From: Tillus elongatus
Lineage: Eukaryota > Arthropoda > Insecta > Coleoptera > Cleridae
DNA length: 64,000 nt
Direction: 5' to 3'
NCBI GenBank assembly: GCA_964006375.1
Contig: OZ023264.1
Span: 17,536,717-17,600,716, forward strand
Shown one piece after another: positions 3,093 through 60,282 of the stretch. Within the stretch, counting starts at the first letter, position 1, and every line of letters begins with the position of its first letter. The position numbers and the translations under genes were made by a program. The notes beneath the pieces were generated by a model, which saw only the letters and a list, made by a program, of their open reading frames with translations, was not told the origin of the DNA and ran no database searches.

Positions 3093-3880
3093 GCTCAAAA
3101 ATGAGTTTATGTAGGCCATATTTCAACAAAAATGAGTTTATGTGCGCAATATTACTCTTAGGCAGCTTAATATTAATTTGTGAAAATTTTCATTTGAGGT
3201 GCAAACTGTGACGTGTTTTTTTTATATTACCACACATTTCTGTGTCTCTAAGAAATGATATCTCAATCTAAACGAGCTAATATCTGATGACGTTAAATGA
3301 ATAATTTATCAATTAGTCATACACACGACGAGAAGAATGATGACATTTTTTCTGTCATGACTGAGCACAGCCTCGCCCGACCCGTCGATCATCCTAATGT
3401 TGGTAGTTCTGGTTGACTACACAGAAGTAGCGTCTTCCGGATGTGCGTCAGCATCGGAAATACTGCAGAAACAAGTGAATATATGGCCCCCACAGCCAGC
3501 TTTCCGCTAGCCAACAGAAATATTCAGCGATTTCTTTTATAGTCTTGTTTACCAGCGCTGGCGGATAGAAAAGAGGGATATATTCCAGAAACTTTTTCAA
3601 TACATCTTTATGCTCTTCCAGGGAACGCCCAATTAAATTAAGTTTTATTTTACGCCTTATAAGGCAGTTGTTGAAACGAAAAGTCTTAGGGAATGTATTG
3701 GTGGAGATAATCTGTTTAGATTGGTCGCATGTTGGTCTGGATTTTGATTGAATTTATACAGTTTCTTAAATTTGAGTTTTATGTTTTGCCGTTTGTAGTT
3801 ATTTTTTACTGACAAATGATTAAATCAGCAGTTAAAATTATTGTGGATATACGGTTCGAGAGCGAACTAAAATAACGTCT
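3093..3880. other. Unassigned stretch without recognised gene
   Basis: No confident gene or known repeat was found. A minus-strand open stretch around 3455-3630 translates without stops and includes LEEHKDVLKKFLEYI, vaguely like a retroelement polymerase linker, but there are no catalytic motifs to support that. Confidence 0.4.
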
Positions 3881-5811: not shown

Positions 5812-7733
5812 GTAAGAAGAAACCGCTATGTTCGCATTCTTTCTGAGCCAAAAAACTCGTTTAATAACCACATCAAAAACAAAGTCCTCTTAAGCTCCAG
5901 CGGCAGCAAACCCTTCTTGACTCTTGCTGAATCTATTGGGAATAATTTCTGCAAGAGCACGTCCCCAACTCTTGTCTCAGGGGATGAAATTGTTTCTACC
6001 GCCCTGGGCAAGGCTGAACTTTTTGCCTCGTTGTTCGCCGGCAATTATACTCTCAACCCACCTCCAAATGTTTAACCACCAACAGTCCCCAATGTCGCGC
6101 ATAAAATGACGGATATCATTTTCAAAACTAAAAAGGTACGAAAGATGCTCTCTTCTTTTAATACCAGGAAAGCCTCTGGTCTTGACGAGATCCCAGCAAT
6201 TGTTCTCAAAAAATGCGCACCAGAACTTGCTCCTGTCCTGACTCGTCTGTTTCAGACATCTTACAATAGATATTCCCCAGTAACTGGAAAACTGCTCGAG
6301 TACAACCCGTCCACAAGAAAGGATCGAAAGCGCTTCCTAGCAACTACAGGCCTATTTCTCCCCTTTCAGTCATCTCTAAAGTGATGGAAAAGTTGATAGA
6401 CCCGAATTACTAAAATTTCTTGAAAAACACAGTCTAATCCACGACAGGCACTATGGATTCCGTCAGCGCAGATCAACTGTCGACCTCCTTTCCTTTGTCA
6501 CCCATTCTTGTAACAAGTCTATGAAACTACACGGCGAATCCCAGATTGTCGCTCTAGACATATCCAAAACATTCGACCAGGTCTGGCACGCAGCGTTGCT
6601 TAATAAACTACCGGCCTATGGCCTACCACCAAAACTCTGTACGTGGACAGCAAATTTCCTCTCCAACCGGAGCATTTCTGTTGTCGTGGATGGCCATTCC
6701 TCCAAACTGTATCCAATTAATGCAGAAGTTCCTCAAGGTTCAGCTTTAGCCCCTAATTTGTTTCTTCTCCACATCAATGACCTCCTCTCTAGCACATCCA
6801 ACCCAGTTCACAGTTACGCAGAAGACAGCACCCTCCATTCAAATATACAATATTCTAAGCCTGTCTCTTTAGCCCAATTATATGAGGATCGCAGACTCAT
6901 GGAGGGTTATATCTCGGTGGATCTCCAAAAAATATTAGACTGGGGAAGTAGAAATCTTGTACAATTTAACCCCACCAAATCACAGTCTTGCTTTCTTTCT
7001 CATAAGAGATACACCAGCCCTAGACCCATCACAATAAGCAACCAAGTTATTCAAAGTAATGAGTTCTTTTCACTTGTTGTCATCTCTGTGGATTGAAATC
7101 TCAATTGGCACCAACATGTCACATCAATTGCAGAAGCGGCTGCTAAGAAATTAGGTTTCCTCTTCCGGGCTCGCAAATACTTTTCACCAGCTAATCTCTA
7201 TACTTTATACACTTTACAAATAAGACCAAACCTCGAATACTGCTCTCACATCTGGGGTGCTGCTGCCTCTTCTACATTCGCTATCCTGGACTCCATTCAG
7301 AAGAGAGCTATACGTCTCATCGGTGACCCTACCAACACCCAAAGGCTGCCATCCCTTGCCCACCGACGTGCTGTTGGTGAGCTCTCTCTCTTTTATAGAT
7401 ATCTGCACGGGCATTGCTCAGAGGAGCTTTCTTCCATAGTTCCTCCACCTGTTGCCCCCAACAGATCTACCTGGGGAACAGAGCGAATGCACCCTTTTAC
7501 TGTCCAGGTCACCAGACATCGACCATCTTGTTATGCCCGCTCCTTTGTCTCGAGGACTTCCAAGTTGTGGAATTCCTTGCCGGCACATGTTTTTCCTTCT
7601 CCCCCGAAACTTCAAGTCCAGAATTAACAAGTTGCCTCTTTACTCCTTGTCGACACCCACGGTACGATAGTATTTAGACAGTAAGCTCTCGTGGTGTGTT
7701 ATTGAAATAAAAAATTAAAAAAATTAATTTCAG
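5812..7733 (+). other. Putative intron-like interval containing a LINE
   Basis: The interval starts with GTAAGA and ends with TTAATTTCAG, both close to splice consensus. Removing it would join codon TGG-G to GT-GCG-ATC, giving W-G-A-I-F in one frame across the transposase halves F2a and F2b. That fits the transposase family alignment. No transcript evidence is available; this is inference from boundaries and reading frame. Confidence 0.4.
5817..7722 (+). mobile_element. 5'-truncated Jockey/CR1-type LINE, copy 2
   Basis: Plus-strand copy from the linker just upstream of the reverse transcriptase to the common 3' end. An intact stretch at 6521-7096 carries VALDISKTFDQVWH, EVPQGSALAP and a changed catalytic box (YAEDS in place of YADDS). 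Upstream, frameshifts break the fingers domain near 6270-6420, and the thumb and C-terminal parts are in other frames. The copy sits inside a DD41D transposase remnant. It has the same 5' truncation point and left flank as copy 7 at 63 kb, so the two are duplicates rather than independent insertions. Confidence 0.9.
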
Positions 7734-15732: not shown

Positions 15733-18258
15733 TTTTTTTTTTATTTCAACAACACACCACGACGGCTTACAGCCTAAATACTATCGTACCGTGAGTGTCG
15801 ACAAGGAGGAAAGAGGCAACTTGTTAATTCTGGACTTGAAGGTTTGGAGGTTCGGGGGAGAAGGAAAAACATGTGCCGGCAAGGAGTTCCACAATTTGGA
15901 AGTCCTCGGGACAAAAAAGCGGGCATAACAAGATGTTCTATGTCTGGTGACCTGGACAGTAAAAGGATGCATTCGCTCTGTTCCCCTGGTAGATCTGTTG
16001 GGGGCAGCAGGTGGAGGAACTATGGAAGAAAGCTCCCCTGAGCAGTGCCCCTGCAGATATCTATAAAAGAGAGAGAGGTCACCAACGGCACGTCGGTGGG
16101 CAAGGGATGGCAGCCTTTAGGTAAGGGTAGGGTCACCGGTGAGACGTATAGCTCTCTTTTGAATGGAGTCCAGGATAGACAGTGTAGAAGCGGCAGCAGC
16201 ACCCCAGATGTGGGAGCAGTATTCGAGGTTTGGTCTTATTTGTGAAGTATATAAAGTATAGACATTAGCTGGTGAAAAATATTTGCGAGCCCGGAAGAGG
16301 AAACCTAAATTCTTAGCAGCCGCTTCTGCAATTGCTGTGACATGTTGGTGCCAATTGAGATTTCGATCCACAGAGATGCCAACAAGTGAAAAGGACACAT
16401 TACTTTGAATAACTTGGTTGTTTATTGTGATGGGTCTAGGGCTGGTGTATCTCTTATGAGAAAGAAAGCAAGACTGTGATTTGGTGGGGTTGAATTGTAC
16501 TAGATTTCTACTTCCCCAGTCTAATATTTTTTGGAGATCCGCGGAGATAGAACCCTCCATGAGTCTGCGATCCTCATCTAGTTAGGCTAAAGAGACAGGC
16601 TTAGTGTATTGTATATTGGAGTGGAGGGTGCTGTCGTCCGCGTAACTGTTAACTGGGTTGGATGTGCTAGAGAGGAGGTCATTGATGTGAAGAAGAAACA
16701 AAGTAGAGGCTAAAGCTGAACCTTGAGGAACTCCTGCATTAATTGGATACAGTTTAGAGGAATGGCCATCCACGACAACAGAAATGCTCCGGTTGGAGAA
16801 GAAATTTGCTGTCTACGTACAGAGTTTTGGTGGTAGACCATATGCCGGTAATTTATAAAGTAGCGCTGCGTGCCAGACCCGGTCGAATGCTTTGGGTATG
16901 TCTAGAGCGACAATCTGGGATTCACCGTGTAGTTCCATAGACTTGTTCCATGAATGGGTGACAAAGGAAAGGAGGTCGGCGGTTGATCTGCGCTGACGGA
17001 ATCCATACTGCCTGTCGTGGATTGGACTGTGTTTTTCAAGAAATTTTAGTAATTCAGTGTTTATATACTTTTCCATCACTTTAGAAATGACTGAAAGGAG
17101 AGAAATAGGCCTGTAGTTGCTAGCAAGCGCTTTCGATCCTTTCTTGGGGACGGGTTGTACTCGAGCAGTTTTCCAGTTACTAGGGAATATGCCTCTATTG
17201 TAAGATGTCTGAAACAGACGAGTCAGGACAGGAGCAAGTTCTGGTGCGCATTTTTTGAGAACAATTGCTGGGATCTTGTCAAGGCCAGAGGCTTTCCTGG
17301 TATTAAGAGAAGAGAGCATCTTTCGTACCTTTCTAGTTTTGAAAATGATATCCGTCATTTTATGCGCGACATTGGGGACTGTCAGTGGTTGAACATTCGG
17401 TGGTGGGTTGAGAGTGGACTTGCCGGCGAACAACGACGCAAAAAGTTCAGCCTTGCCCAGGGCGGTAGAAACAATTTCATCCCCTGAGACAAGAGGTGGG
17501 AACGTGCTCTTGCAGAAATTATTCCCAATAGATTTAGCAAGAGTCCAGAAGGGTTTACTGCCGCTGGAGCTTAAGAGGACTTTGTTTTTGATGTGGTTAT
17601 TAAACGAGTTTTTTGCCTCAGGAAGAATGCGGACATAGCGGTTTCTTGCGTCGTTAAATGCTTGACGGTTTTCTTGACTGGGATTGTGTAGAAGCTTTTT
17701 TTGCGCTTTGACCTTTTCAAGTCTGGTCTTGTCACAGGATTTAGAGAACCAGGGCTTTTGAGTGGCTGCAGAGGTTTTCTGTGTACGTGGAATAAATAAT
17801 TCCATGCCAGCTTGAATAATTTCGGTGACGTTTTGTAAGATATCGGAGGGGTCAGGATGAGAGAAGCAGACAGGCGCCCATGGAAAGGAGCAAAAGTAAT
17901 CTCGCATTTCGTCCCAGTTCGCGGAGTTGTAGTGCCAAACGATACCTGGGTGTGATGACTGCGTGACCTCGGGTTGCATTGCGCAGGAAGCAGTGACCAT
18001 GCCGTGGTCTGAGCGACCCAGGGGGGCGGCGACTGGTATCTTATAGCAGTCAGGATTTGTAGTAAGAAAGAGATCCAAGGGATTTGAGCTGTGTGTTGGG
18101 ATGCGAGGAAAGTAAGTAGGTTGCTGAACCATATTGGCTAAAGAATTGCTGACTGCAAAGGCCTCCGCTGCTCTTCCTTGTGGATAGGTTTTTGAAGATC
18201 CTAGCCATTCCTTATTATGGACATTGAAGTCACCAAGAATAGTGACCTCGGAGGAAGG
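15733..18258 (-). mobile_element. Jockey/CR1-type LINE, copy 3 (longest)
   Basis: Minus-strand LINE with its 3' tail at 15733 and 5' break at 18258, inside a foldback arm. It is the longest copy here and reaches into the endonuclease domain (VTILGDFNVHNKEW). The 3' end carries the T-run and ATTTCAACAACACACCACG sequence shared by all copies. Because the arm's empty-site sequence exists on the other arm, the insertion boundaries are well defined. Target-site duplication is short or absent. Confidence 0.92.
16117..18258 (-). pseudogene. LINE endonuclease/reverse transcriptase reading frame, broken
   Basis: From right to left the frame encodes the end of an EEP-type endonuclease (GDFNVHNKEW near 18220, GRSDHGMV near 18000), a long linker, and reverse transcriptase fingers and palm (SNYRPISLLSVISKVMEKYI, QYGFRQRRSTADLLSF, VALDIPKAFDRVWH). 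This part is open from 18258 to 16813. A frame change near 16800 and stops near 16575 separate it from GVPQGSALAST, the YADDS catalytic box, and the C-terminal NPTKSQSCFLSHKRYTSP segment. Reverse transcription of LINE RNA at a nicked target is the family role. This copy cannot make the full protein. The clade is inferred from motifs only. Confidence 0.88.
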
Positions 18259-18788
18259 ATAATCAATTATGAAAAAACAAACAAAAACAAAAATGAAAAA
18301 AACCATTTTTTAAATTTGAGTGAAGTCGAAAAGTGCCAAACTGACATATGAATGTGTTTAGAAGAATTTGAAATTACTTTTAACGACAATTTAATAAACT
18401 TAAAGAAAGATAATAATTTTAGAAATCACTACCCCTATTTATATTTCCTAGACAAAAACAAAAAACAAATTCAAATAGACAATTGTTAGCTTCATATGTC
18501 AGTTTGGCACTTTTCTACTTCACTCAAATTTAAAAAACGGTTTTTTTCATGTTTGTTTTTATTTGTTTTTTCATAATTGATTATAGTAAAACTTACGTTA
18601 GATGTAAGTATTTTAACCTTTTATATTTTTCCTAAGTAAATTGTAAACTTTTTCCTTTCCATGTTGTAACCTTGAGAATGGAATAAACTTTTCCTAGCTC
18701 GGCATTTAATAAAGAGTTTTATTTTACAACTGACGGTTTTCCCACAATTTTTTAAGTAAATAAGATTAGTACCGTCACGAAAACTTAA

Positions 18789-23429: not shown

Positions 23430-24194
23430 TATGTTAAAATGTTACTATGTTCATAAATACCTTCAATGGCAAGTAGCGTTACTTCAGCTATGTATAGTTT
23501 TGGTCACAATTTACTATCTGGGTTTACTTTTTTGTCAATGGATGCTGCAATGATCACGCAAATTCCACAGTTCTTATCTCGTATTTTATTTACCGATGAG
23601 GCCAACTTTTCACGAGAACCTATTAGAAATTTTCATAATAACAACATATGGTCTGAAGAAAACCCACACGAAATTACGGAATCTCATTTTCAACACCAGT
23701 TTTCATTAAATGTATTGCTTGCTGTCATTGGTGATGACTTAATTGGACCATATTTTCCTCCGATAAGACTAAATGGAGAAGTGTACTGTCATCTACTCAA
23801 AGAAGAGTTGCCCCTACTTCTTGAAAATATTCCTTTACAAATTAGACAACAAATGTGGTACATGCACGACAGGGCTCCGGCTCATTTTCGTATCAACGCT
23901 CGTAACTACTTGAACGAAGTTTACCCAAATCGTTGGATAGGTCTAGGAGGCCCACAGAATTGGCCTGCCCGATCTCCTGAATTGAATCTGTTGGATTTTT
24001 GCCTGTGGGGTTTTCTGAAAACCTTAGTTTATTCAAGTCCTGTTGAAAACATCGATGACCTCAGAAATCGTATTATCGCATCATGTGATATTATAAGAAA
24101 CACACCCGGTATTTTTCATAGAATACGAAATTCAATGAGAAACAGATTAGTCATGCGTTCTCTGCGAAGGGGGCATTTTCAACATTTATTATGA
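23430..24194 (+). pseudogene. DD41D Tc1/mariner transposase, N-terminally truncated
   Basis: The last 200 codons are open and well kept. FTDEANF carries the first Asp, NVLLAVIGDDLIGPYFPP follows, MHDRAPAHF carries the second Asp, and WPARSPELNLLDFCLWGF carries the third, 41 residues after the second. The natural stop follows FQHLL. The DNA-binding N-terminal half is missing. Just upstream, FCQWMLQ lies in a different frame near 23525-23545, showing a frameshift, so the Met at 23466 is not a true start. The family cuts and pastes at TA dinucleotides. This copy is probably inactive despite intact catalytic residues. Confidence 0.85.
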
Positions 24195-27870: not shown

Positions 27871-27961
27871 GTGGCGCAACGAAAAGGAAACAGACCCAGT
27901 GTTGCACATTTCGTATTAAGCACACTTGTAGAACCCAAAACACCACAACACATTTTAAAAA

Positions 27962-28002
27962 CCTGACGATCGTTTCACTAACCAAGTTAGCGTCATCAGA
28001 GG
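27962..28002 (-). ncRNA. Hammerhead-ribozyme-like motif
   Basis: On the minus strand this 41-base segment reads CCT-CUGAUGA, then C, then the helix GCUAAC/GUUAGU with loop UUG, then GAAA, the short palindrome ACGAUCGU, and a C at the expected cleavage site, with AGG closing stem I. Core CUGAUGA, GAAA and a GUC triplet are all present. One unpaired pyrimidine lies between CUGAUGA and the helix, which may reduce or change activity. Hammerheads with very short stem III are known in PLE terminal repeats. Confidence 0.6.
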
Positions 28003-28036
28003 ATAAATGATTTAGATTAATTTGAAAAAATTCCAT

Positions 28037-28074
28037 CCTCTGATGACGCTAACTTGGTTAGTGAAACGATATTA
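28037..28074 (+). ncRNA. Hammerhead-ribozyme-like motif, decayed stem III
   Basis: The same CUGAUGA core and stem II as the minus-strand motif at 27962-28002, but after GAAAC the sequence reads GATATTAG in place of GATCGTCAGG, so stem III, the cleavage site and the stem I partner are lost. Probably inactive. Confidence 0.5.
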
Positions 28075-28869
28075 GTTTTTTTAAAGTTTTATGGTGATTT
28101 TGGTTCTCCAAGTGTGCTTATCAGTGCTCATCACAGGTTACAATCTTATCTTAGTGACATATTTCCTGTTATTTAAAAAAAATCACTTGCATACCACAAT
28201 TTTTATTTGGAGGGGGAAATGTTCGGCCGATATTTTCAGTGCTATCAGTTCATCCCTCTAGCGGGGAGAGTTTCACTCCTGAAACTTCAAATGGAAAGGG
28301 GTCTTGAGTGACACTTCACTTTAAAGCTTCTTAAAATTTTTTTTAAAGGGTCAGTTTTTGAAAATCGGTTGAGTATTTTTTGAGAACACGCATTTCAACT
28401 TGATGCCTGCCAAACAAAACAAACAAGTTTTTTACATTATTTTTATTACCTTAACAGTATACTTAGTGTATAAATTGTTCGAAATGTCGACCTCCAGCTT
28501 CCATCCAATTCTTTCTGTTCAAAGCGGTTTTGAACGTTGCGGATCATTTCCGGTGTGATTTGTTGACACTCGTTGATCGGAAATCGTCTACGCATTCTGG
28601 CAGTGCAGTGTAAATCTTATTTTTCAGGTGGCCCCACAAGTAAGTCTAAAGGATTTAAATCTGGCGAACTTGTAGGCCATTCTATTCCTCCTCTTCGCCC
28701 AATCCATCTCGTACGAGAAATGTAATAACATTTTTTAAAAGATGTCGTTGATCCAGGGCCAACAGAAGTTTTTAAACAAAGTAACCGTTACAATGAAAGC
28801 GAATTAATATTTCAGTAGGACAAAGAAGCTCCACACTAGACCATTGCTGTTCGTCGGTATCTGAACCAA

Positions 28870-31327: not shown

Positions 31328-32345
31328 ATATCAAAAAAAGACTTGACATTTGTTAAAAAATTGTCTCTTTGGTGTACCACCTCAAGAATTTCTTAAAATA
31401 ATGTATACAGTCTACGTTAGAACCTAAAAGCTTAAATAACCTTTTATATTTCAGGAGAAATTAATGCTTTGCTAAAGTAATTCCGGCTACCCGTCTCTCC
31501 CCTATACTTATCAGTGCTCCTCACTGGTGCCAATCTTTACTTAGCGTTCTATAATAAATACAGCTATAGATATTTTTCTCTAGTTTCAGAATAGCTTCTG
31601 ATTTTACGGTTGCAAGAAAGACAAATTATTGTGAAGCAAGGGAAACTCTAGGTTCGTGTTTAATATACTTTTACTTAAGTTTCAGGTATGGGAGTTGATT
31701 TTGGCGCTCATCTATATTTTACTGTGGCATATCTTAATGAGATTTACACCCAAAAAACCTGTGTTCTACGTACTGTTCCACCAAATACTTACTAAATCCT
31801 GACCCCAGTGTCTTTTTCGGCAGCTCCTGTTCTGTACTGGAAGAAGCCAGAACAATATAAAGCAGTATTCCACATAGTGGTGCGGAGTGAACAGCGACCA
31901 TAAATAACCCATTAGGGATGTGTTGTTACCCCCCTGCAGACTATGACAAAATGGGGCCCTTCGGGACCACTCATGCGGCAATGCTGGACGAGCCCGGAGC
32001 ACTCGCGCTGTCACCGCTCTTGTTAAAGAGATTCGCATTCTTGATCTATTGCGACAGCCGGCTATTATCGTTTTCCACTATCACATACTTATATGTATTT
32101 ATGAATATATAAGGCCAAAATTATTCAGATGAAAATAATCCCTTAAGTCAAAAGCTTTAGTCAGTTTTACAGTTTCCATATCTCTGAATCTAGGTTGCAT
32201 TTCTTACATCAATGGAACAAATATCAGTGACGGATTCTACTTTTTGAATAATAATTGGAAAGTATTTTTCTAAATTAATTTTAACCATACGCGCCCTTCC
32301 AAACGTTTTGTTGAAGTACGTACTAATCATATACCAATATATCTA
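31328..32345. other. Unassigned stretch; short PLE-like fragment
   Basis: Around 31500-31545, ACTTATCAGTGCTCCTCACTGG resembles the PLE terminal sequence at 28112-28140. A GC-richer patch lies at about 31915-32060 without recognised coding similarity. Confidence 0.4.
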
Positions 32346-32734: not shown

Positions 32735-33814
32735 TCAGTTAAGTAAGTGTTCAAATTGTTGACCACCAGCTTCCATACAAAGGAACAAACTTTGTTCAAA
32801 ACGAGCTCAGACATTCTGGAGTATTTGTGGAGTTATTAGACGGCATTCTTCAACAATGCGTCGTCTAAATTCTTCCAGAGACTCCGGTTCTGTTGCGTAA
32901 ATTCTACTCTTTAAATGGCCCCATAGAAATAAGTCTAAAGGAGTTAAATCCGGTGATCTAGAGGGCCACTCAATAGCACCTCTACGCCCAATCCATTGTC
33001 CTGGAAACTCTCTGTTCAAAAACTCCCTAACACGTTGTGAAAAATGCGGAGGAGCTCCATCTTGTTGAAACACTAATTGATTTTCTTGATATCGATCATC
33101 ATTTTCAACAATGTCAATTAGTAGAGGGTAAACGATATCTTCTAGTAACTCCACATGCGTTTTGCCACTCAAATTGCCATCAAGAAAAATTGGTGTGATT
33201 AAATGGTCTCCAAAAATGCCAGTCCATACATTCAATTTCTGTGGAGTTTCAGTGTGGAGTTCGTGAAAATTTCTTGGATTATTATCTGCCGAATAACGAC
33301 AATTATGACGATTGACTGTAGAGTTTAATAAAAACGTACACTTGTCTGAAAAACAGATATTGAACAGAAAGTTCCCGTTATCAGCTATTCGTGCAGTCAT
33401 AACTTCACAAAACTCCAGCCGCCGATCAAAATCATCTTCATTCAGTTGATGTACAAGATGAATTTTATACGGGTGGAATTTATGATGCTTCAATATTCGC
33501 TGAATAGTTCCTCTTTTGGTGTTTGAAACAGTGGTCAATTTGCTCTTGCTCAAAGTTGGGTCTGCAGCAATTTGTCCTAAAACTTCAATCTCAGTAGTCT
33601 CATTTCTAACCGGAAATTCACGTTCAGGATCCCGTTTTTTGTTGGCTACTGAACCACTTTGTCGAAACTTTGCAACTAACTCCAAAATGTATTTTCTGTT
33701 AACATCTCTGGTCGGATCTCGTTCATTAAACAAATTTGCAGTACGGTTGGGACAGTCATCGTTTTGAAAAAAAAGAGTAATTATTTCAACTCTTTCTTCT
33801 ACAGAATACACCAT
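32735..33814 (-). pseudogene. DD41D transposase, one premature stop
   Basis: The best start is the Met at 33814 (MVYSVEERVEII), chosen because the family begins this way; an in-frame Met upstream at 33907 lies in the terminal repeat. A helix-turn-helix region follows (residues about 1-130, with LSKSKLTTVSNTKRGTIQRIL). The catalytic core has FSDKCTF, QQDGAPPHF and SPDLTPLD, with 41 residues between the second and third Asp. All three Asp are present. The Glu usual after the first Asp is Lys. An in-frame TGA at 32807 cuts off the last 24 residues, after which EAGGQQFEHLLN and the natural stop can still be read. Confidence 0.88.
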
Positions 33815-33840
33815 TGTGAAATTAATAATAATAATAAACC

Positions 33841-33947
33841 GCATTTCTCTCATTCCGATAAGAAATGTTCTAATAGTCAATTTTTTGTTCACAAACCAAC
33901 AAAACATTGACCATCAGCACATTTCTTATCGGAATGAGTGAAATGCG
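33841..33947. repeat. Palindrome at the transposase start side of transposon A
   Basis: GCATTTCTCTCATTCCGATA and its near reverse complement lie about 50 bases apart, making a hairpin of about 45-50 base pairs between the inner end of the right terminal repeat and the transposase start. The same hairpin occurs in transposon B at 41088-41195. Confidence 0.8.
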
Positions 33948-39275: not shown

Positions 39276-39915
39276 TTAGTACCTATTTTTAAATCGGGTA
39301 ATTTTTTTAAGTTTGTTTATTTAAATAAGCGATCCAATTTCTTTAAAGTATCTCTATGTTTTCAAGACACCATATATTATAATCTTTGGAAAGGGGAAGT
39401 GATTTCTAACATTATCATATTTTTATTTCAGCGTTTGGAAAACAAAACATAATTCACGTTGTTCTTTTTATTTGGTAAATCACATTGTGTGACTATATCT
39501 CCTAACAAGTTAATAAATTTGATACACAATATCTCAAAGACACACCCCAATTCGTCATAATATCAGTAACAGAAATGTATCAAAACTGGCCCATAAATAA
39601 CCCTTATCATCTTAGGAATTTGTCGTTGTACATCCCACAAGCAATATCTAAAATTGCAACTGTTTTCATCAGAAAGTTTTCCCGACTAGCGCCAACATAA
39701 AGTATTACGAGGGGTTAAAATGGCCTATCATAGATATCTATCAATCTGCAAAGCACTCAGTCGATTCGTGCTTTTGCAATACTCATATATCTTGCCGATC
39801 GTTATAGATATGAATGATATCGGGTCATGGTTTCTTTCTTTCGCTGAATGGGGTGATACACTCATTTCTCTGATTTATTCCGACTTTGCCAAGTTTACAG
39901 ATTATCTATTAGAAG
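39276..39915. other. Unassigned stretch without recognised gene
   Basis: A 66-codon frame at 39720-39920 has no recognisable similarity and is not supported as a gene. It is the flank of SINE copy 1. Confidence 0.45.
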
Positions 39916-39926
39916 ACTAACTAAAG

Positions 39927-40286
39927 AACCTCGGTGGTTCAGGGGTAAGAACGTGTGCCTCTGAACCGAAGGGTACTGGATTCGATTCCAGGTTACTCCT
40001 TTCACTTTTTCAGTACAAACTGTAACATTAACATCAACCGAGGTTCTGGCATTGTATTTGAGCAAGTTGAATGTCTGCACGTTCCGCCCATCGGAGTGGG
40101 CGTAAATCCGTCGGTCCCGTGTCCATACGATGTTGGGCACGTTAAAGATCCCTACCCTCCTTACAGTAAGGCAGGGGTTCGGCAAAATTTCCAGGATAGT
40201 GAGGTGAAACTGCTCCCTGGCGTCGGTCATTGGCCATAGTCGCGGAAATAGGCCGACGTTAAAGAAACAAAACACACACACACAAA
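39927..40286 (+). mobile_element. tRNA-derived SINE, copy 1
   Basis: The head has pol III boxes (TGGTTCAGGGGTAAG and GGATTCGATTCC). A conserved body and a tail of (CA)n follow. The 11-base direct repeat ACTAACTAAAG at 39916-39926 and 40287-40297 is the target-site duplication. The body is very similar to the copy at 57.7 kb. It is non-coding and would depend on a LINE for movement. Confidence 0.88.
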
Positions 40287-40314
40287 ACTAACTAAAGATT
40301 GAAACCTGTAAAGG

Positions 40315-40425
40315 TTGGAACCTGACTTGTACACTTGGAGAACCCAAATCACCACAACACATCTTTTTAAAGACCTGACGATCGTTTCACTAACAAGGTT
40401 AGCGTCATCAGAGGATGAAAAATTG
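40315..40425 (-). mobile_element. PLE terminal repeat fragment
   Basis: ACACTTGGAGAACCCAAATC, CACCACAACACA and a hammerhead-like core match the PLE ends at 27.9 and 48.9 kb. Only one arm is present. Confidence 0.65.
40374..40414 (-). ncRNA. Hammerhead-ribozyme-like motif
   Basis: The minus strand reads CCT-CUGAUGA-C, helix GCUAAC/GUUAGU with loop CUU, GAAA, ACGAUCGU, C and AGG. It matches the 27962-28002 motif except in the stem II loop, as expected when only the helix matters. The same extra pyrimidine is present after CUGAUGA. Confidence 0.6.
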
Positions 40426-40521
40426 TAAAGTGCTTACTAATAAACATCACATTATATACTTTAAGGCGAGACCGATACCGAGTGGGAGACTAAATCGTAG
40501 GCAAATTTTCACTGTGTTGTA

Positions 40522-40625
40522 TTAGTGGATTTTCATTAAGAAAAATTCGCTAATAGAGAGGTCACGATGAAAAGCTTTCGGAAAAATTACTTCAGATGAG
40601 CGCGAATTTGGTCCCTAAAAACTTT
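40522..40625 (-). repeat. TAH repeat copy 14, hairpin end
   Basis: Hairpin (TTAGTGGATTTTC with GAAAAATTCGCTAA) at 40522-40553, then the decayed GCGCGAATTTGG block before (TA)n at 40634. The rest of this copy appears to resume at 42891, beyond two inserted transposons. Confidence 0.75.
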
Positions 40626-40630
40626 TATAT

Positions 40631-40804
<174 letters not shown>

Positions 40805-44789: not shown

Positions 44790-45640
44790 CCAGACACCTT
44801 TATTTAATTAAGCATCACATTAAGTCTTTTAAACCAAGGCAATCTCATTACTCACGACGCAAAAAACCTCTTCGTTTTTACCTGCCGGAAGGTTTAACCA
44901 TAAAGGACATGCATTCCATATTTCCCTCTGAATAGCTATGATCAATATATACTGGAAATTATCACAACAAACTCTAATATAAAGTTTGGCTTCCCACGAT
45001 CAGATACATGTGATTCCTTCCAACAAAAACTTACTTCCCAAGAAATCGGCGATGCAGAGAAAGTCCAAACAACGATGAAAAAAGATTCATTTAAGAAAGG
45101 CCGAAGCATTTTTTACAATGAAAAAACGATACAAAACACAGGCTAACGCTGAAGAAATCGTTGTATTAACTTTGAATTTATGCAGAATCTACCTCTTCCC
45201 CATATTCCATCAAACCCACTTTTTTATTCACGTCAGTTATCAGGTATACACCATCTTGATAGATATGAGTCATTTATATTTACACTGAGGGACAAGCTAA
45301 AAAAGGTACCAACGATGTGTGTTTCATGTTGTTATATTAACAATAATACCTTTACGACAAAGAATCTTATACTCTTAAGTAATGGATGTCCCAGGCAAAA
45401 CAAGAGTTATGTTATGTTTTGCACTTTTAATTTATTCTTGTCAATGTACTTAAAATTTTTGACAAAATTACGTACCTGTTTCCTGTTCAGGGCCATTCCT
45501 ATATCCCAAACGATCAGGACCTCGCACTGATCGAAAAGAAAAAGAAACGCCATTTAAAAACAGTAGAGACACTTGAAGAGTGGGATAAAGTGATATTGTC
45601 AGCACGAAGTAATCGCTCAAAATTTTCCTTAGTCAAAATT
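44790..45640 (+). pseudogene. DUF7869-like TE protein remnant
   Basis: Conceptual fragments in changing frames read HIKSFKPRQSHYSRRK, PLRFYLPEGLTIKDMHSIF, NLPLPHIPSNPLFYSRQLS, LLSNGCPRQNKSYVMF, GHSYIPNDQDLALIEKKK-like sequence and EEWDKVILSARS. From memory, this order (H..SHY, LP.I..N..FY.RQL, SDGCPGQN, GHSYLPND) recurs in a repetitive insect protein family annotated with DUF7869 and thought to come from transposable elements. The role is unknown. Several frameshifts are present. The LINE at 45641 has cut into its C-terminal end. Confidence 0.6.
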
Positions 45641-46872
45641 CTTGTCACCGATTCTTGTAACAAGTCTATGGAACTACACGGTGAATTCCAGATTGTCGCT
45701 CTAGACATATCCAAAATAATCGACCAGGTCTGGCAAGCAGTGCTGCCTAATAAACTACCGGCCTATGGCCTACCACCAAAACTATGTACGTGGACAGCAA
45801 ATTTCCTCTCCAACCGGAGCATTTCTGTTGTCGTGGATGGCCATTCCTCTAAACTGTATCAAATTAATGCAGGAGTTCCTCAAGGTTCAGCTTTAGCCCC
45901 TCCTTTGTTTCTTCTCCACATCAATGACCTCCTATCTAGCACATCCAACCCAGTTCGCAGTTACGCGGACGACAGCACTCTCCACTCAAATATACAATAT
46001 TCTAAGCCTGTCTCTTTAGCCCAATTAGATGAGGATCGTAGACTCATGGAGGGTTCTGTCTCCGTCGATCTCCAAAAAATATTAGACTGGGGAAGTACAA
46101 ATCTTGTACAATTCAACCCCACCAAATCACAGTCTTGCTTTCTTTCTCATAAGAGATACACCAGTCCTAGACCCATCACAATCAACAACCAAGTTATTCA
46201 AAGTAATGAGTCCTTTTTACTTGTTGGCATTTCTGAGGATCGAAATCTCAATTGGCACCAACATGTCACATCAATTGCAGAGGCGGCTCCTAGGAGATTA
46301 GGTTTCCTCATCCGAGCTCGCAAATACTTTTCACCAGCTAATCTCTATACCTCATATACTTCACAAATAAGACCAAACCTAGAATACTGCTCCCACATCT
46401 GGGGTGGTGCTGCCGCTTCTACACTCGCTATCCTTGACTCCATTCAGAAGAGAGCTATACGTCTGATCCGTCACCCTACCCTCACCCAAATGCTGCCATT
46501 CCTTGCCCACCGGCGTGCCGTTGGTGACCTTTCTCTCTTTTATAGATATCTGCACGGGCACTGCTCAGAGGAGCTTTCTTCCATAGTTCCTCCACCTGCT
46601 GCCCCCAACAGATCTTCCAGGGGAACACCCAATGCACCCTTTTACTGTCCAGGTCACCAGACATACAACAGCTTGTTATGCCGTTTCTTTTGTCCCAAGG
46701 ACTTCCAAGTTGTGGAATTCCTTGCCGGCACATGTTTTTCCTTCTCCCGCGAACCTCCAAACCTTCAAGTCCAGAATTAACAAGTTGCCTCTTTCCTCCT
46801 TGTCGACACCCACGGTACGATAGTATTTAGGCTGTAAGCCCTCGTGGTGTGTTGTTGAAATAATAAAAAAAA
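45641..46872 (+). mobile_element. 5'-truncated Jockey/CR1-type LINE, copy 4
   Basis: Begins in the palm at DSCNKSMELHGE and runs to the common 3' end (GTGTGTTGTTGAAATAAT and an A-rich tail). A single frame from the junction to 46780 carries VALDISKIIDQVWQ, GVPQGSALAPPLFL, the intact YADDS box, and the C-terminal half as far as LINE position 46780. The frame also includes about 17 codons of the upstream DUF7869-like remnant (from 45590), a chance fusion. The fingers domain is missing, so the protein is inactive. Confidence 0.92.
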
Positions 46873-48557: not shown

Positions 48558-48651
<94 letters not shown>

Positions 48652-48783
48652 ATATAAAAATTTAAACTGACCCCGGATATGTTTTCTGGGGGGCCTAATT
48701 AGCGCTCATTTGAAGAAATTTTTTCAAAATTCAAAAGTCGGGATCTCCTCATTAGTGAATTTTTTTTTAAGAAAATTCACTAA
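47451..48783 (+). repeat. TAH repeat copy 16, full length
   Basis: The plus-strand reference copy: GGACGCAGCAAGTGCG at 47451, the inverted-repeat-bounded unit to 47757, the body (GACTTATGGGCCAACCTGTG near 47865), GAGTTATCGGTGTGATAC, (TA)n at 48562-48648, GACCCCGGATATG, and the hairpin ending CACTAA at 48783. Confidence 0.9.
48562..48648. repeat. (TA)n microsatellite
   Basis: TA run of TAH copy 16. Confidence 0.97.
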
Positions 48784-48973
48784 AAATGGTAATAAACTCG
48801 ATAGTGCGTTTGTTTTCACCTCCTGAAAAATTAACATTTTGGACATATGTTGTTTCTAAAATAAACTCCTCAACCGTTATATACATTTTAACCAATTAGT
48901 TTTTAAATTGTGTAATATGTGAAAACTTGAACCTGTGATGAGCACTAATAAGTACACTTTGAGAACACCCAAA

Positions 48974-49520
48974 TCACAACACATATTTCAGAGACCTTAC
49001 GATCGTTTCGTTGACAATGTCAACATCTCCAGAGGAAGAAAATTTTGATAACCCTCTGTTTAAGAGGTCCATCTCATTTTTGTTAAACAACTGCGAAGAA
49101 AGATTTTCTACAAGGTCAATTTTCCGAGGAACTGTTTTTTCAATTTTAATCTGATCGTTTACAAGTTTTTTTAGTTTTTTATTCTGAATATTGATTTTCT
49201 TAATTAACTTAGCGTTTATGACTACAAACATGTTCCTCTGAAAATTGCACCATTCATCATACTCTATGTTATCTAAATTAAATGTTAACTTTTTAAACAA
49301 ACTATAAGCTTCTATTTCTAATTCACTACGTTTCGAGTAAAGATATTGCCTTTCTAAATCTAACCATTTTTGCTTAGCACACTTTAAAACCTTTTGACCA
49401 ACTTTTGTGTTGATAGAAATTTTAACATTGAAATTAATCAAATTAGGAAAAGCCGACTTCTGTTTACATGATTTTAAAAAAGCAATATCAGCACCTAAAA
49501 ATCGAATCTTTCTATATAGA
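48974..49520 (-). pseudogene. PLE polyprotein N-terminal fragment
   Basis: The minus-strand frame is open from about 49520, without a start codon there, through the Met at 49441 and on to 48974. It includes RFLGADIAFLKSCKQKSAFPN, KWLDLERQYLYSKRSELE, KLIKKINIQNKKLKKLVNDQ and VENLSSQLFNKNEMDLLNRGL. The closing 'L..N....LLN.GL' pattern and the Lys-rich helix before it are typical of the region preceding the reverse transcriptase in PLE proteins. The last 20 or so codons run through the terminal repeat and are not native. The assignment is from pattern memory, supported by the terminal repeats. Confidence 0.65.
48995..49035 (-). ncRNA. Hammerhead-ribozyme-like motif, one core change
   Basis: The minus strand reads CCT-CUGGAGA-U, helix GUUGAC/GUCAAC with loop AUU, GAAA, ACGAUCGU, A and AGG. 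The core has G in place of the invariant A of CUGANGA, so activity is doubtful. Stem II differs from the 28 kb family but remains paired. Confidence 0.55.
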
Positions 49521-49528
49521 ATTTTCTT

Positions 49529-49569
49529 CCTCTGAAGATGTTGACATTGTCAACGAAACGATCGTAAGG
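49529..49569 (+). ncRNA. Hammerhead-ribozyme-like motif
   Basis: The plus strand reads CCT-CUGAAGA-U, helix GUUGAC/GUCAAC with loop AUU, GAAA, ACGAUCGU, A and AGG. CUGANGA and GAAA are intact, and the cleavage triplet is GUA. Compared with the motif at 27962-28002, stem II has two double compensatory changes and a GU-to-GC change, good evidence for selection on structure. Confidence 0.65.
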
Positions 49570-49620
49570 TCTCTGAAATATGTGTTGTGGTGATTTGGGT
49601 GTTCTCAAAGTGTACTTATT

Positions 49621-50032: not shown

Positions 50033-50857
<825 letters not shown>

Positions 50858-54951: not shown

Positions 54952-55709
54952 TTTTTTCTTCCAACAACACACCACGAGGGCTTACAGCCTAAATACTATC
55001 GTACCGTGGGTGTTGACAAAGAGGAAAGAGGCAAGTTGTTAATTCTAGACTTGAAGGTTTGGAGGTTCGGAGGAGAAGGAAAAACATGTGCCGGCAAGGA
55101 ATTCCACAATTTGGAAGTCCTCGCGACAAAAGAGCGGGCATAACAAGATGTTCTATGTCTGGTGACGTACACAGTAAAAGGGTGCATTCGCTCTGTTCCC
55201 CTGGTAGATCTGTTGGGGCAGCAGGTGGAGGAACTATGGAAGAAAGCTCATCTGAGCAGTGCCGGTGCAGATATCTATAAAAGAGAAAGAGGTCACCAAC
55301 GGCACGTCGGTGGGCAAGGGATGGCAGCCCTTGGGTGAGGGTAGGGTCATCGATGAGACCTATAGCTCTCTTCTGAATGGAGTCCAGGATAACGAGTGTA
55401 GAAGCGGCAGCGGTACCCCAGATGTGGGAGCAGTATTCGAGGTTTGGCCTTATTTGTGAAGTATATAAGGTATAGAGATTAGCTGGTGAAAAGTATTTGC
55501 GAGCCCGGAAGAGGAAACCTAATTTTTTAGCAGCCGCTTCTGCAATTGATGTGACATGTTGATGCCAGTTGATATTTCGATACACAGAAATGCCAACAAG
55601 TGAAAGTGACTCATTACTTTGAATAACTTGGTTGTTTACTGTGATGGGTCTAGGGCTGGTGTATCTCTTATGAGAAAGAAAGCAAAACTGTGATTTGGTG
55701 GGGTTGAAT
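54952..55709 (-). mobile_element. 5'-truncated Jockey/CR1-type LINE, copy 5
   Basis: A short 3' piece only: tail and TCCAACAACACACCACGAG at the left, break at 55709 within the NPTKSQ-coding region. The frame 55585-54989 encodes the C-terminal part (NINWHQHVTSIAEAAAKKLG, PNLEYCSHIWG, PTLTQGLPSLAHRRAVGDL). No reverse transcriptase core remains. Confidence 0.9.
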
Positions 55710-57711
55710 CTGTATACAAAAGTCTAACAGTTGTTGTGCATAATAACATAAGTTATAAAGTTTTTATGGTCAGTTGTTTGACAATTAATGCATAACAAAT
55801 ACCTATAATAAAACTTCTAAATTTTGTCTCTAGGTTTTCATTTTATAGATCAGAGGCACAACATACTAATCCGCTCTCGTAATGATTTATTCAGGCAATC
55901 GTGAAAGAATATGCCCATAGAACACTGTTAACAGTTATAGTTATGTAATTTTTACTTTTTACGGATTAGGAATTTTTTTAGTGCATACCTATAACTGCAA
56001 TCAGTTAAAATATTCAGCATTTAAAGAAATTAAAAACTTATTCAACTTGTAATAGCTTTATTGATGTATTGAGGCGACTAAGGTAGGCAATGTTAGTTTT
56101 GGCAGGTTCCCCACAACTACCTAGCTAACGTTTTGTTTAGAACAAACAAAAACAAAACAAAATCAACGAGTATGAGCATGAGCTCTTATTTATTTTGTGC
56201 GAGATTAGTTACGCATTTTCAAATTACAGCACGATAAAAAAGAAATGTTAAAATCCTAGTTAATTAGCAATTTTAACACACTTTGTAACTATTTTTACTT
56301 AAACACTCGGAGGCAGTTGTATACGGATGTACCCGTGATGATTAATTATTTTTTGGAACCTTAACAACGTATTCCACTTCCTTTGTCGTGTCTCAAACCA
56401 TGTGTAATTAGGCTTTTGTTATATTTAGAACGTTGGTTTCACTAATTTTATATCGATTTTCCCTTTCAACTGGATCAATACTCAAACTACTATGCCATGA
56501 TTATATAAATATTCTAAAACACCTAATTATTTCGGCGTTCATGATTCAAATTTTATTACAATGATCACACCAGATTAATTATTCATTTTCAAACGTTTAT
56601 ATTATTAAAACACCTAATTTGTTTACATTACACTGATTAAGAAACAAAGCGGGGCCGCCTCTGACTCAACGCAGTTCACGGTTTGGCCGCTGTGTGACGC
56701 CACCTTTCTTTGCAACCAGTCGAAATCTTGGCCTACGTTGGGCGTGTTGAATTTGCAAAACTTTGCTAATAAAACTGTGTTTTTTAAAGAAATGTAATGA
56801 ATTAAATCAACACCAAGGTAACGTACCGTTTTAATTTACTTATTGTTACGTATTTTTAATCTTATCTCGTCTGTATATCGATTAATTGTTGTGTAATTTA
56901 CGATTGAAATTGCATCTGTTTAGGTTCAACCCAGTAGTAGATAAAAATACATTTTTTATGTTTCTTATCTACGCTTGTATTTCCTAGTTTTGTGTCTAAT
57001 AAATTTCACGCCTAATGTCCTGCAGAAAGCAAGGGTTTTCGTGGAACGAATTACACGGGCATTATTGAATTTTCCGTAATCCAATAAACGTTTTGACAGT
57101 TGTATAAACATTTGTATTTGTTTATAAACGATGAGCGTGTTGCGAGTGTTATATCATGTTTTTAAATAAACGCTGGTGTCATTAAACCTGGAAATTATTG
57201 GTTTTCGGGGTTGTATTTTGGTAGTTCGTGATTTTCTTCAGCTAATCAATAAGTCTGACGTTGGCTTTATTTATATTCTAACACACCAAGGCCTGTTTGA
57301 TTTCGGGCGATTTAAATTGCCAGCGGCGCCGACTCCGTTCCGCAGATGGGGGTTTTTCTCCAATAGGCAACTTCAGACGAGATTGCTATTCTAATTTGAT
57401 TCGAAGGAATGATTGATAGCGCCTGTAAAAATTTATAGCTTGTACACATCTGATTAAACTGGTGATTATCAGAGCCGAGTTCGGTAGCTATCCAATTGAT
57501 GGAGTTGAAACTACTTGTGCTCAATTTACTAACAGTTTTATTTGTGCTATCGATTTTTAGGCTCTACAAATTTTATACAAAATTCTGTGTGTACCGTATT
57601 GTAAATATCGTATTTTATTTACGTGTTGTTAGGTTTTGAATCAGTTCTGAAGTACAGGTGTAAATTTCACAAGGTAGATTTTATGTATAGGGTGTTTCAT
57701 AGCCATGGTTT
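55710..57711. other. Island without recognised repeats or genes
   Basis: None of the window's repeat families were found over about 2 kb. Composition varies, with GC-richer patches near 56650-56740 (GCGGGGCCGCCTCTGACTC) and 57310-57380. No frame above about 75 codons and no recognised protein. It may be single-copy intergenic or non-coding transcribed DNA. Confidence 0.5.
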
Positions 57712-57727
57712 ACATTATTGAGGGAAG

Positions 57728-58088
57728 AACCTCGGTGGTTCAGGGGTAAGAACGTGTGCCTCTGAACCGAAGGGTACTGGGTTCGATCCCAGGTTGCTCC
57801 TTTCACTTTTTCAGTACAAACTGTAAAATTAACATCAACCGAGGTTCTGGCATTGTATTTGAGCAAGTTGAATGTCTGCACGTTCCGCCCTTCGGAGGGG
57901 GCGTAAAGCCGTCTGTCCCGTGTCCATGTGATGTTGGGCACGTTAAAGATCCCTACCCTCCTTACAGAAAGGCAGGGGTTTGGCAAAATTTCCAGGATAG
58001 TGAGGTGAAACTGCTCCCTGGCGTTGGTGATTGGCCATAGTCGCGGAAATAGGCCGACGTTAAAGAAACAAAAAACACACAAGACAAC
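57728..58088 (+). mobile_element. tRNA-derived SINE, copy 2
   Basis: The head has TGGTTCAGGGGTAAG (A box) and GGGTTCGATCCC (B box). The body is nearly the same as in copy 1, including GTTGGGCACGTTAAAGATCC and AATAGGCCGACGTTAAAG, with an AC-rich tail. The 16-base direct repeat ACATTATTGAGGGAAG flanks it (57712-57727 and 58089-58104), so it is a recent, whole insertion. Confidence 0.92.
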
Positions 58089-58104
58089 ACATTATTGAGG
58101 GAAG

Positions 58105-58685: not shown

Positions 58686-60200
58686 TTCAACAACACACCA
58701 CGAGGGCTTACAGCCTAAATACTATCGTACCGTGGGTGTTGACAAGGAGGAAAGAGGCAGCTTGTTAATTCTGGACTTGAAGGTTTGGAGGTTCAGAGGA
58801 GAAGGAAAAACATGTGCCGGCAAGGAATTCCACAACTTGGGAGTCCTCGGGACAAAAGAGCGGGCATAACAAGATGTTCTATATCTGGTGAGCTGGACAG
58901 TAAAAGGGTGCATTCGCTCTGTTCCCCTGGTAGATCTGTTGGGTGCAGCAGGTGGGGGAACTACGTAAGAAAGCTCCTCTGAGCAGTGCCCGTGCAGATA
59001 TCTATAAAAGAGAGAGAGAGGTCACCAACGGCACGTCGGTGGGCAAGGGATGGCAGCCTTTGGGTGAGGTTAGGGTCACCGATGAGACGTATAGCTCTCT
59101 TTTGAATGGAGTCCAGGATAGCGAGTGTAGAAGCGGCAGCGGCACCCCAGACGTGGGAGCAGTATTCGAGGTTTGGCCTTATTTGTGAAGTATATAAGGT
59201 ATAGAGATTAGCTGGTGAAAAGTATTTGCGAGCCCGGAAGAGGAAACCTAATTTCTTAGCAGCCGCTTCTGCAATTGATGTGACATGTTGGTGCCAATTA
59301 AGATTTCGATCCACAGAAATACCAACAAGAGAAAAGGACTCATTACTTTGAATAACTTGGTTGTTCATTGTGATGGGTCTAGTGCTGGTGTATCTCTTGT
59401 GAGAAAGAAAGCAAGACTTAGTTTTGGTGGGGTTGAATTGTACAAGATTTCTACTTCCCCAGTCTAATATTTTTTGGAGATCCACGGAGACAGAACCCTC
59501 CATGAGTCTGCGATCCTCATCTAATTGGGCTAAAGAGACAGGCTTAGAATATTGTATATTTGAATGGAGGGTGCTGTCGTCCGCGTAGCTGTGAACTGGG
59601 TTGGATGTGCTCGAGAAGAGGTCATTGATGTGGAGAAGAAACAAAGTAGGGGCTAAAGCTGAACCTTGAGGAACTCCTGCATTAATTGGATACAGTTTAG
59701 AGGAATGGCCATCCACAACAACAGATATGCTCCTGTTGGAGAGGAAATTTGCTGTCCACATACAGAGTTTTGGTGGTAGGCCATAGGCCGGAAGTTTATT
59801 AAGCAGCGCTGCGTGCCAGACCTGGTCGAATGCTTTGGATATGTCTAGAGCAACAATCTGGGATTCACTGTGTTGTTCCATAGACTTGTTCCAAGAATGG
59901 GTGACAAAGGAAAGGAGGTCGGCAGTCGATCTGCGCTGACGGAATCCATACTGCCTGTCGTGGATTAGACTGTGTTTTTCAAGGAATTTTAGTAATTCGG
60001 TGTTTATATACTTTTCCATCACTTTAGAGACGACTGAAAGGAGATATATGGGCCTGTAGTTGCTGGGAAGCGCTTTGGATCCTTTCTTGGGGATGGGTTG
60101 TACTCGAGCAGTTTTCCAGTTACTAGGGAATATGCCTTTATTATAAGATATCTGAAACAGACGAGCAAGCTCTGGTGCGCATTTTTTGAGAACAATTGCT
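58682..60200 (-). mobile_element. 5'-truncated Jockey/CR1-type LINE, copy 6
   Basis: The 3' end (ATTTCAACAACACACCACG) sits directly on a (TA)n tract, and the 5' break at 60200 meets another (TA)n tract. TAH sequence resumes beyond it, so the LINE went into the microsatellite of TAH copy 23. It covers reverse transcriptase motifs to the 3' end. Confidence 0.93.
58961..60022 (-). pseudogene. LINE reverse transcriptase, 353-codon open frame
   Basis: The best-kept reverse transcriptase core in the window. From right to left it has MEKYINTELLKFLEKHSLIH, YGFRQRRSTADLLSF, VALDISKAFDQVWH with the first catalytic Asp, GVPQGSALAPTLFLLHIND, and YADDS with the two catalytic Asp. It continues through RNLNWHQHVTSIAEAAAKKLG and CSHVWGAAAAS and ends shortly after AHRRAVGDLSLSF through a shift in the GA-rich tract. 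The fingers' N-terminal part lies outside the frame, and the endonuclease is missing. Confidence 0.9.
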
Positions 60201-60203
60201 ATG

Positions 60204-60207
<4 letters not shown>

Positions 60208-60282
<75 letters not shown>

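What the first reader, a model, noticed from the sequence alone, without database searches (positions are those of the whole stretch)
48947..49620. Hammerhead-like ribozyme motifs in inverted terminal repeats of a PLE, with covariation
Each arm carries a 41-base motif with CUGANGA (one arm mutated to CUGGAGA), a 6-bp stem II, GAAA, a tiny ACGAUCGU stem III, a cleavage triplet and a CCU/AGG stem I. Compared with the motifs at 28.0 and 40.4 kb, stem II changes from GCUAAC/GUUAGU to GUUGAC/GUCAAC: two double compensatory changes and one GU-to-GC. That is strong evidence for conserved RNA structure. An extra pyrimidine lies between CUGANGA and stem II in every copy, which is unusual for the canonical core. 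Hammerheads in PLE terminal repeats are established; the inverted two-ribozyme arrangement around a short coding piece and the extra core base merit attention.
Basis: partly seen in the sequence, partly recalled or inferred. Interest (0 to 1): 0.78.

Follow-up and report, generated by a model that had tools for sequence, protein, structure and literature searches.

The report
Ribozyme-bearing ends of a Penelope retroelement
This is a short relic of a known kind of jumping gene (a Penelope-like retroelement) whose two mirror-image ends each carry a small hammerhead-type ribozyme motif; the arrangement is normal for the family, but the motif has one extra core base and the two ends tend to differ, one short and one long.

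Summary
The window has five copies of a 41-nt hammerhead-like motif (pairs at 49.0 and 28.0 kb, a single at 40.4 kb). The host genome has 20,732 exact-core matches. A full element, L032, shows the family: pLTR, 791-aa ORF with RVT_1 and GIY-YIG, pLTR, plus an inverted pLTR: a Penelope-like element. The motif lies in the pLTR, about 90 nt upstream of the ATG, not in the ORF. The finding (48916-49620) is one degenerate insertion: two stretches running from just below the TATA box to the tail, head to head, around a 462-nt ORF fragment. Head-to-head pLTRs, a tail on one of them and target-site duplications are published for Penelope. Among the first 100 listed matches, 20 of 26 close neighbours are head to head and none tail to tail; 17 of the 18 head-to-head pairs measured have one short and one long tail; 12 of 19 have duplications abutting such ends. 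Stem II covariation is weak in the window, better supported genome-wide. The extra core base is a pyrimidine in 97 of 98. Rfam does not recognise the motif; cleavage is untested. New member of a known kind.

The parts
48916..49042 (-). Left arm (49L): pLTR stretch from just upstream of the motif to the end of the long tail
   Evidence: 93.8% to L032 1632-1761
48995..49035 (-). Hammerhead-like motif 49L, core mutated to CUGGAGA
49049..49510 (-). PLE ORF fragment, about codons 17-170 of 791
   Evidence: 97.2% to L032 1817-2278; protein 92% identical over 161 columns
49517..49620 (+). Right arm (49R), inverted, ends with the short tail
   Evidence: 95.3% to L032 1625-1730
49529..49569 (+). Hammerhead-like motif 49R: CUGAAGA, extra U, 6-bp stem II, GAAA, ACGAUCGU, GUA, CCU/AGG
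27917..28003 (-). Arm 28L with motif 27962-28002, short tail
28036..28139 (+). Arm 28R with degraded motif 28037-28077, long tail; head to head with 28L
40287..40523 (-). Single copy with motif 40374-40414; similarity to 28R reaches 40287, to pLTRs of other loci reaches 40523

Best explanation
The locus is one old, degenerate insertion of a Penelope-like element. Mechanism (inferred): RNA starts at the pLTR promoter just upstream of the ribozyme motif; the PLE protein cuts both DNA strands and starts reverse transcription on each of them inside the RNA, at one of two sites about 30 nt apart, so that one cDNA has a short and the other a long tail; each cDNA here ran to about the RNA 5' end, and the two were joined head to head, with a 462-nt ORF piece copied in between by a template jump. 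The motif is a minimal PLE-type hammerhead with one extra core base; its palindrome ACGAUCGU could form a continuous stem III between two copies. Shown: anatomy, orientation rule, two tail ends, duplications, covariation. Inferred: promoter, two-ended priming, template jump. Not shown: cleavage. At this locus the motifs are probably inert.
For: Full element with RVT_1 3.6e-13 and GIY-YIG 7.9e-07, pLTRs, inverted pLTR and a 13-bp duplication. Window blocks map to it. Among the first 100 listed matches 20 of 26 neighbours under 5 kb are head to head and 0 tail to tail; in the young subfamily 39 of 50 and 0. 17 of 18 head-to-head pairs have one short and one long tail. Longest word shared by the two flanks is 9 nt or more in 16 of 19 pairs against 6 of 342 mispaired flanks, and in 12 of 19 it abuts ends at 50-57 and 83-90 nt. 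In close pairs 17 of 22 arm ends lie 14-20 nt upstream of CTGA, 27-33 nt below the TATA box start. PAc protein extends both strands and starts inside the RNA at two sites, the tail lying between them (PMC11167929, section 3).
Against: No exact duplication longer than 6 nt was found around the three window loci. In 7 of 19 pairs the shared word is short, off by some nt or not at the ends. Some long-tail calls are 5' pLTRs that run on into the ORF; without three such pairs the count is 14 of 15. The PAc study saw no difference in RT start between top and bottom strand in vitro. 5' ends are variable outside the close pairs. Only the first 100 of each match list were seen.
Confidence: 0.85

Rival explanations
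1. The head-to-head arms come from self-priming (snap-back) or template switching on one strand, not from priming on both target strands.
For: Proposed for A. vaga Penelope from palindromes at the junctions, on an antisense template (PMC3846280, passages). The L032 junction near 1200-1250 is itself an inverted repeat.
Against: A snap-back would be expected to give arms with the same outer end; 17 of 18 pairs differ, at two ends like the two start sites seen in vitro for PAc.
Confidence: 0.25
2. The 41-nt motif is not (or no longer) a ribozyme but a conserved hairpin or a binding site for the PLE protein near the RT start.
For: Rfam reports no hammerhead, even at E up to 10. The lone motif of 40 and 28L is predicted to fold into a long hairpin that buries the core. 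Copies with G at position 17 were propagated: by eye 7 head-to-head pairs have it in both arms. PAc inserts without an active HHR in vitro.
Against: The long hairpin loses pairs at two positions in 3 of 5 copies and pairs 88.0% of cells against 94.5% for the hammerhead fold. Differences between 49R and 40 fall only in stem II, loop II, N7, the extra base and position 17. Position 17, free in the search pattern, is never G in 95 copies.
Confidence: 0.2
3. The pair is a DNA-level foldback or terminal-inverted-repeat element, or two separate insertions.
For: Inverted arms around a short core.
Against: One duplication flanks whole pairs; arms end at PLE tails and the family has an intact RT-EN ORF.
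Confidence: 0.02

Closest known systems
Penelope of Adineta vaga, Pen2a (PMC3846280, passages)
   Same: Two direct pLTRs, one inverted pLTR head to head, tail of 31 bp optionally on one of the inverted pLTRs, 9-bp duplication, TATA-like box in the pLTR
   Different: [quoted passage not shown] in L032 the ribozyme motif lies about 90 nt upstream of the ATG. The passages seen do not mention ribozymes
PAc, Poseidon of Anolis carolinensis (PMC11167929, passages and section 3)
   Same: RT plus GIY-YIG, hammerhead near the ORF start, two internal RT start sites with the tail between them
   Different: PAc ORF begins at stem II of its HHR; no difference of start site between strands was seen in vitro
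Minimal type I hammerheads of PLEs (reviews PMC6155905, PMC7761336, PMC6466107, passages; original papers of 2014 and 2017 not held)
   Same: Short stem I and II, stem III lacking or tiny and palindromic, in pLTRs, thought to act as dimers
   Different: Extra base between CUGANGA and stem II in 98 of 100 listed places; whether the 2017 variants include it could not be read
Chrysanthemum chlorotic mottle viroid plus-strand hammerhead (PMC3705267, passages)
   Same: Extra base (A10) between A9 and G10.1; U there raises trans-cleavage 3-4 fold, C or G is very detrimental
   Different: Viroid, extra base A; here U in the CUGAAGA type and mostly C in the CUGAUGA type

Membership tests
Penelope-like element (EN+) | RT domain and GIY-YIG endonuclease in one ORF | tested here: met
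   L032 and L033 ORFs; the window copy itself keeps only an N-terminal fragment
Penelope-like element (EN+) | Tandem or partial-tandem pLTRs | tested here: met
   Same-strand motifs about 3,078 bp apart; L032 pLTR-ORF-pLTR
Penelope-like element (EN+) | Optional tail and target-site duplication | tested here: met
   in relatives; not clear at the window loci
Hammerhead ribozyme | CUGANGA, GAAA, U16.1, H17 not G | tested here: met
   49R, 40, 28L; 49L fails at A6, 28R at stem III and stem I. CUGANGA and GAAA are part of the search pattern; U16.1 91 of 95 and H17 95 of 95 are not
Hammerhead ribozyme | Stems I and II | tested here: met
   Stem II 6 of 6 in 84 and stem I 3 bp in 83 of 95 copies; all features in 73
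Hammerhead ribozyme | Canonical core without a base between A9 and stem II | tested here: not met
   Extra base in 98 of 100 listed places; insertions of one or two nt there are allowed in known alignments (PMC10085705, passages)
Hammerhead ribozyme | Match to an Rfam hammerhead model | tested here: not met
   no known minimal PLE hammerhead was available as positive control
Hammerhead ribozyme | Self-cleavage 3' of H17 | not testable with these tools
   Needs an RNA assay

The most novel reading that the evidence does not exclude
Each insertion is made by two priming events that use different RNA start sites, one per DNA strand (hence one short and one long tail). The ribozyme sits between the RNA 5' end and both start sites, so cleavage would cut the template off from its priming tail; the extra core pyrimidine keeps the ribozyme slow until protein or a second copy engages, making it a switch between mRNA processing and template use.
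Probability: 0.2. Interest if true: 0.65.

Novelty: new member of a known kind. Interest (0 to 1): 0.4.

Why it matters
How PLEs integrate and what their ribozymes do is open; a review calls the in vivo role still a mystery (PMC7761336, passages). A genome with 20,732 motif matches shows clean ends: two discrete tail ends usually used one per arm, duplications around whole pairs, and 5' ends just below a TATA box. That makes two-ended priming directly testable and fits in vitro work in which uncleaved RNA is the main template.

Tried and rejected
Rejected: (1) 'The extra pyrimidine is the wobble base of an Asp codon.' The 49L motif reads in frame within the 191-aa window ORF, and 49R versus 40 differ mostly at third positions (7 of 12); but in the full element the motif lies upstream of the ATG, so that frame is a fusion. 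(2) 'The 49 kb locus is an internally deleted element.' Not excluded, but both arms start near the same pLTR point (L032 1632 and 1625), which a template jump between two complete arms explains better. (3) A simple hairpin instead of a hammerhead fold.

Led nowhere: protein search with the 191-aa frame, Pfam (19: three weak matches below their cut-offs), PDB (37), pattern scans of viral and prokaryote contigs (34, 35). The first extent estimates used unsuitable scoring and were replaced. A genome-wide count of close head-to-head pairs and the number of A-at-17 copies to set beside one search did not complete.

Full report
What is there. The window holds five copies of a 41-nt motif: 49529-49569 (+), 48995-49035 (-), 40374-40414 (-), 27962-28002 (-), 28037-28077 (+). 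A strict scan finds three of them and nothing in 60 dinucleotide shuffles. A model built from the five finds nothing else convincing in the window (next: 11.2 bits at 3281). Rfam reports no hammerhead.

The family. The host genome (1.72 Gb, 30 contigs, unnamed) has 10,301 + 10,431 exact matches to CTGANGA-N13-18-GAAACGATCG; the pattern read backwards has 1. Only the first 100 places were listed, all in the first 9.2 Mb of C1. Same-strand neighbours about 3,078 bp apart mark full units. L032 is a complete example: inverted pLTR, pLTR with TATAAATA 47 nt upstream of CTGA, ATG at 1769, 791-aa ORF with RVT_1 and GIY-YIG, 3' pLTR with long tail, and a 13-bp duplication. Its protein has 308 homologues at E 0.001 or better among 7,993 scored candidates; the best (59%) are unnamed, and the best named ones include beetle proteins (Tribolium castaneum 54%, Molorchus minor 52%, over part of the query). 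This is a Penelope-like element.

The window copy. Read on the minus strand the order is: antisense of L032 1625-1730 (49R, short tail), L032 1817-2278 (ORF), L032 1632-1761 (49L, long tail), at 93.8-97.2% identity. Both arms start at nearly the same pLTR point and end at two different tail ends. The 191-aa frame that runs through the 49L motif is a fusion. In a predicted fold of the whole locus 108 (+ strand) or 96 (- strand) of 115 bases of one arm pair with the other arm, and 49L has a core mutation, so this locus is probably inert.

Genome-wide rules. Of 26 neighbour pairs under 5 kb among the 100 places, 20 are - then + (head to head), 4 --, 2 ++ and 0 + then -. In the GTAGAC/GTCTAC subfamily (first 100 of 128 matches) the 50 neighbour pairs under 7 kb are 39, 4, 7 and 0; the inner gaps of the 39 are 15-47 nt in 9 and 480-5,373 nt in 30, with none between. 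Downstream ends were measured for 95 copies (92 distinct ones from fetched loci, 3 from the window): 53 lie 50-67 nt past CGATCG, 38 lie at 82-95, and four at 13, 31, 70 and 77; none lies at the cleavage position, 2 nt past. Eighteen of the 20 head-to-head pairs could be classed (two lost an arm as duplicates): 17 short plus long, one 70/58. In three of them the long end is a 5' pLTR that runs on into the ORF (2929053, 7579641, 8655562); without these it is 14 of 15. The pairs at 6.33 and 6.36 Mb look like copies of each other. For 19 pairs the longest word shared by the two flanks is 9 nt or more in 16; mispaired flanks give that in 6 of 342. In 12 of 19 the word abuts ends at 50-57 and 83-90 nt; in three it is near such ends (7726549, 8923751, 2926023) and in four it is not (961743, 4833779, 8652483, 8758638). 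So an inverted pair is, as a rule, one insertion. No duplication over 6 nt was found at the window loci.

The 5' ends. In 11 close pairs (one is the window's 28 kb pair, two look like duplicates) 17 of 22 arm ends lie 14-20 nt upstream of CTGA; the window pair fits poorly (9 and 8). That is 27-33 nt below the start of the TATA box in two subfamilies, the usual distance to a transcription start (general knowledge). The close pairs were picked by a gap of 8-60 nt and two motifs, so ends inside the motif would be missed; the empty gap interval does not depend on that limit but also sees only intact motifs. Over the 95 copies as a whole the upstream extents are spread widely.

The ribozyme. Stem II is fully paired in 87 of 98 places; the four commonest forms differ by double changes at pairs 2, 3 and 4. 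A-U at pair 3 occurs in 128 matches; of the first 100 listed, 99 are one sequence and one lies in the other background. The mismatch A.A there is no rarer (158 matches), which speaks against simple counting; but by eye none of the first 100 A.A places lies in a head-to-head pair under 5 kb (one - then + pair with different sequences is 6.5 kb apart), whereas 78 of 100 A-U places lie in such pairs under 7 kb. Mispaired forms look like decay after insertion, the compensated one was propagated; this is one large lineage against many singletons, not many independent events. The extra base is T in 61, C in 36, G in 1 of 98. Position 17 is A 55, C 39, T 1, G 0 of 95. Against a strict need for cleavage: 156 copies of one tail type have another base than A there; of the first 100 listed 53 have G, and seven head-to-head pairs have G in both arms (counted by eye; their ribozymes were not fetched). 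The 49R motif is predicted to pair with a second copy through the palindrome, while lone 40 and 28L motifs are predicted to fold into a hairpin that buries the core.

What is known. Head-to-head pLTRs, a tail on one of them and duplications are described for A. vaga (PMC3846280, passages). PAc protein extends both DNA strands, starts inside the RNA at two sites with the tail between them, and its hammerhead is protein-assisted and dispensable in vitro (PMC11167929, passages and the whole of section 3). Minimal PLE hammerheads are known and thought to act as dimers (PMC6155905, PMC7761336, PMC6466107; passages). The extra base has a precedent in CChMVd (PMC3705267, passages), where U is good and C bad. 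The original PLE hammerhead papers were not held. In the listings I noticed no paper that counts the short/long rule, but the A. vaga paper states it in words and these searches cover open-licence papers only.

Verdict. A correct observation of a known kind of thing. The open points are the extra base and the unequal ends.

Noticed in passing
48558-48718 and 50096-50256: 161-nt inverted repeats (94%) containing (AT)n on either side of the PLE insertion; relatives of the 40518-40800 stretch occur several times in the window.
   Followed up: no
31505-31544: A stretch like the PLE long tail (84-88% over 24-38 nt) without a motif beside it.
   Followed up: partly
39895-40287 (-) and 57681-58091 (-): Two similar open frames (130 and 136 aa) of unknown nature; the first ends where the 40 kb PLE copy begins.
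   Followed up: no
G000:C1:123371114 and 123371246; six further pairs: Head-to-head pairs with G at the cleavage position in both arms, which a hammerhead should not cleave.
   Followed up: partly
G000:C1:313159418 and 313159457: Head-to-head pair whose two tails meet 5 nt apart right at the cleavage position; a possible trace of cleaved templates, one case in the 100 listed.
   Followed up: no
6380-7627, 16117-18309, 45431-46780, 54989-55723, 58961-60280; 23457-24194, 32807-33913: Several copies of one non-LTR reverse-transcriptase frame, and two mariner-like transposase frames (named by their look, no family search).
   Followed up: no
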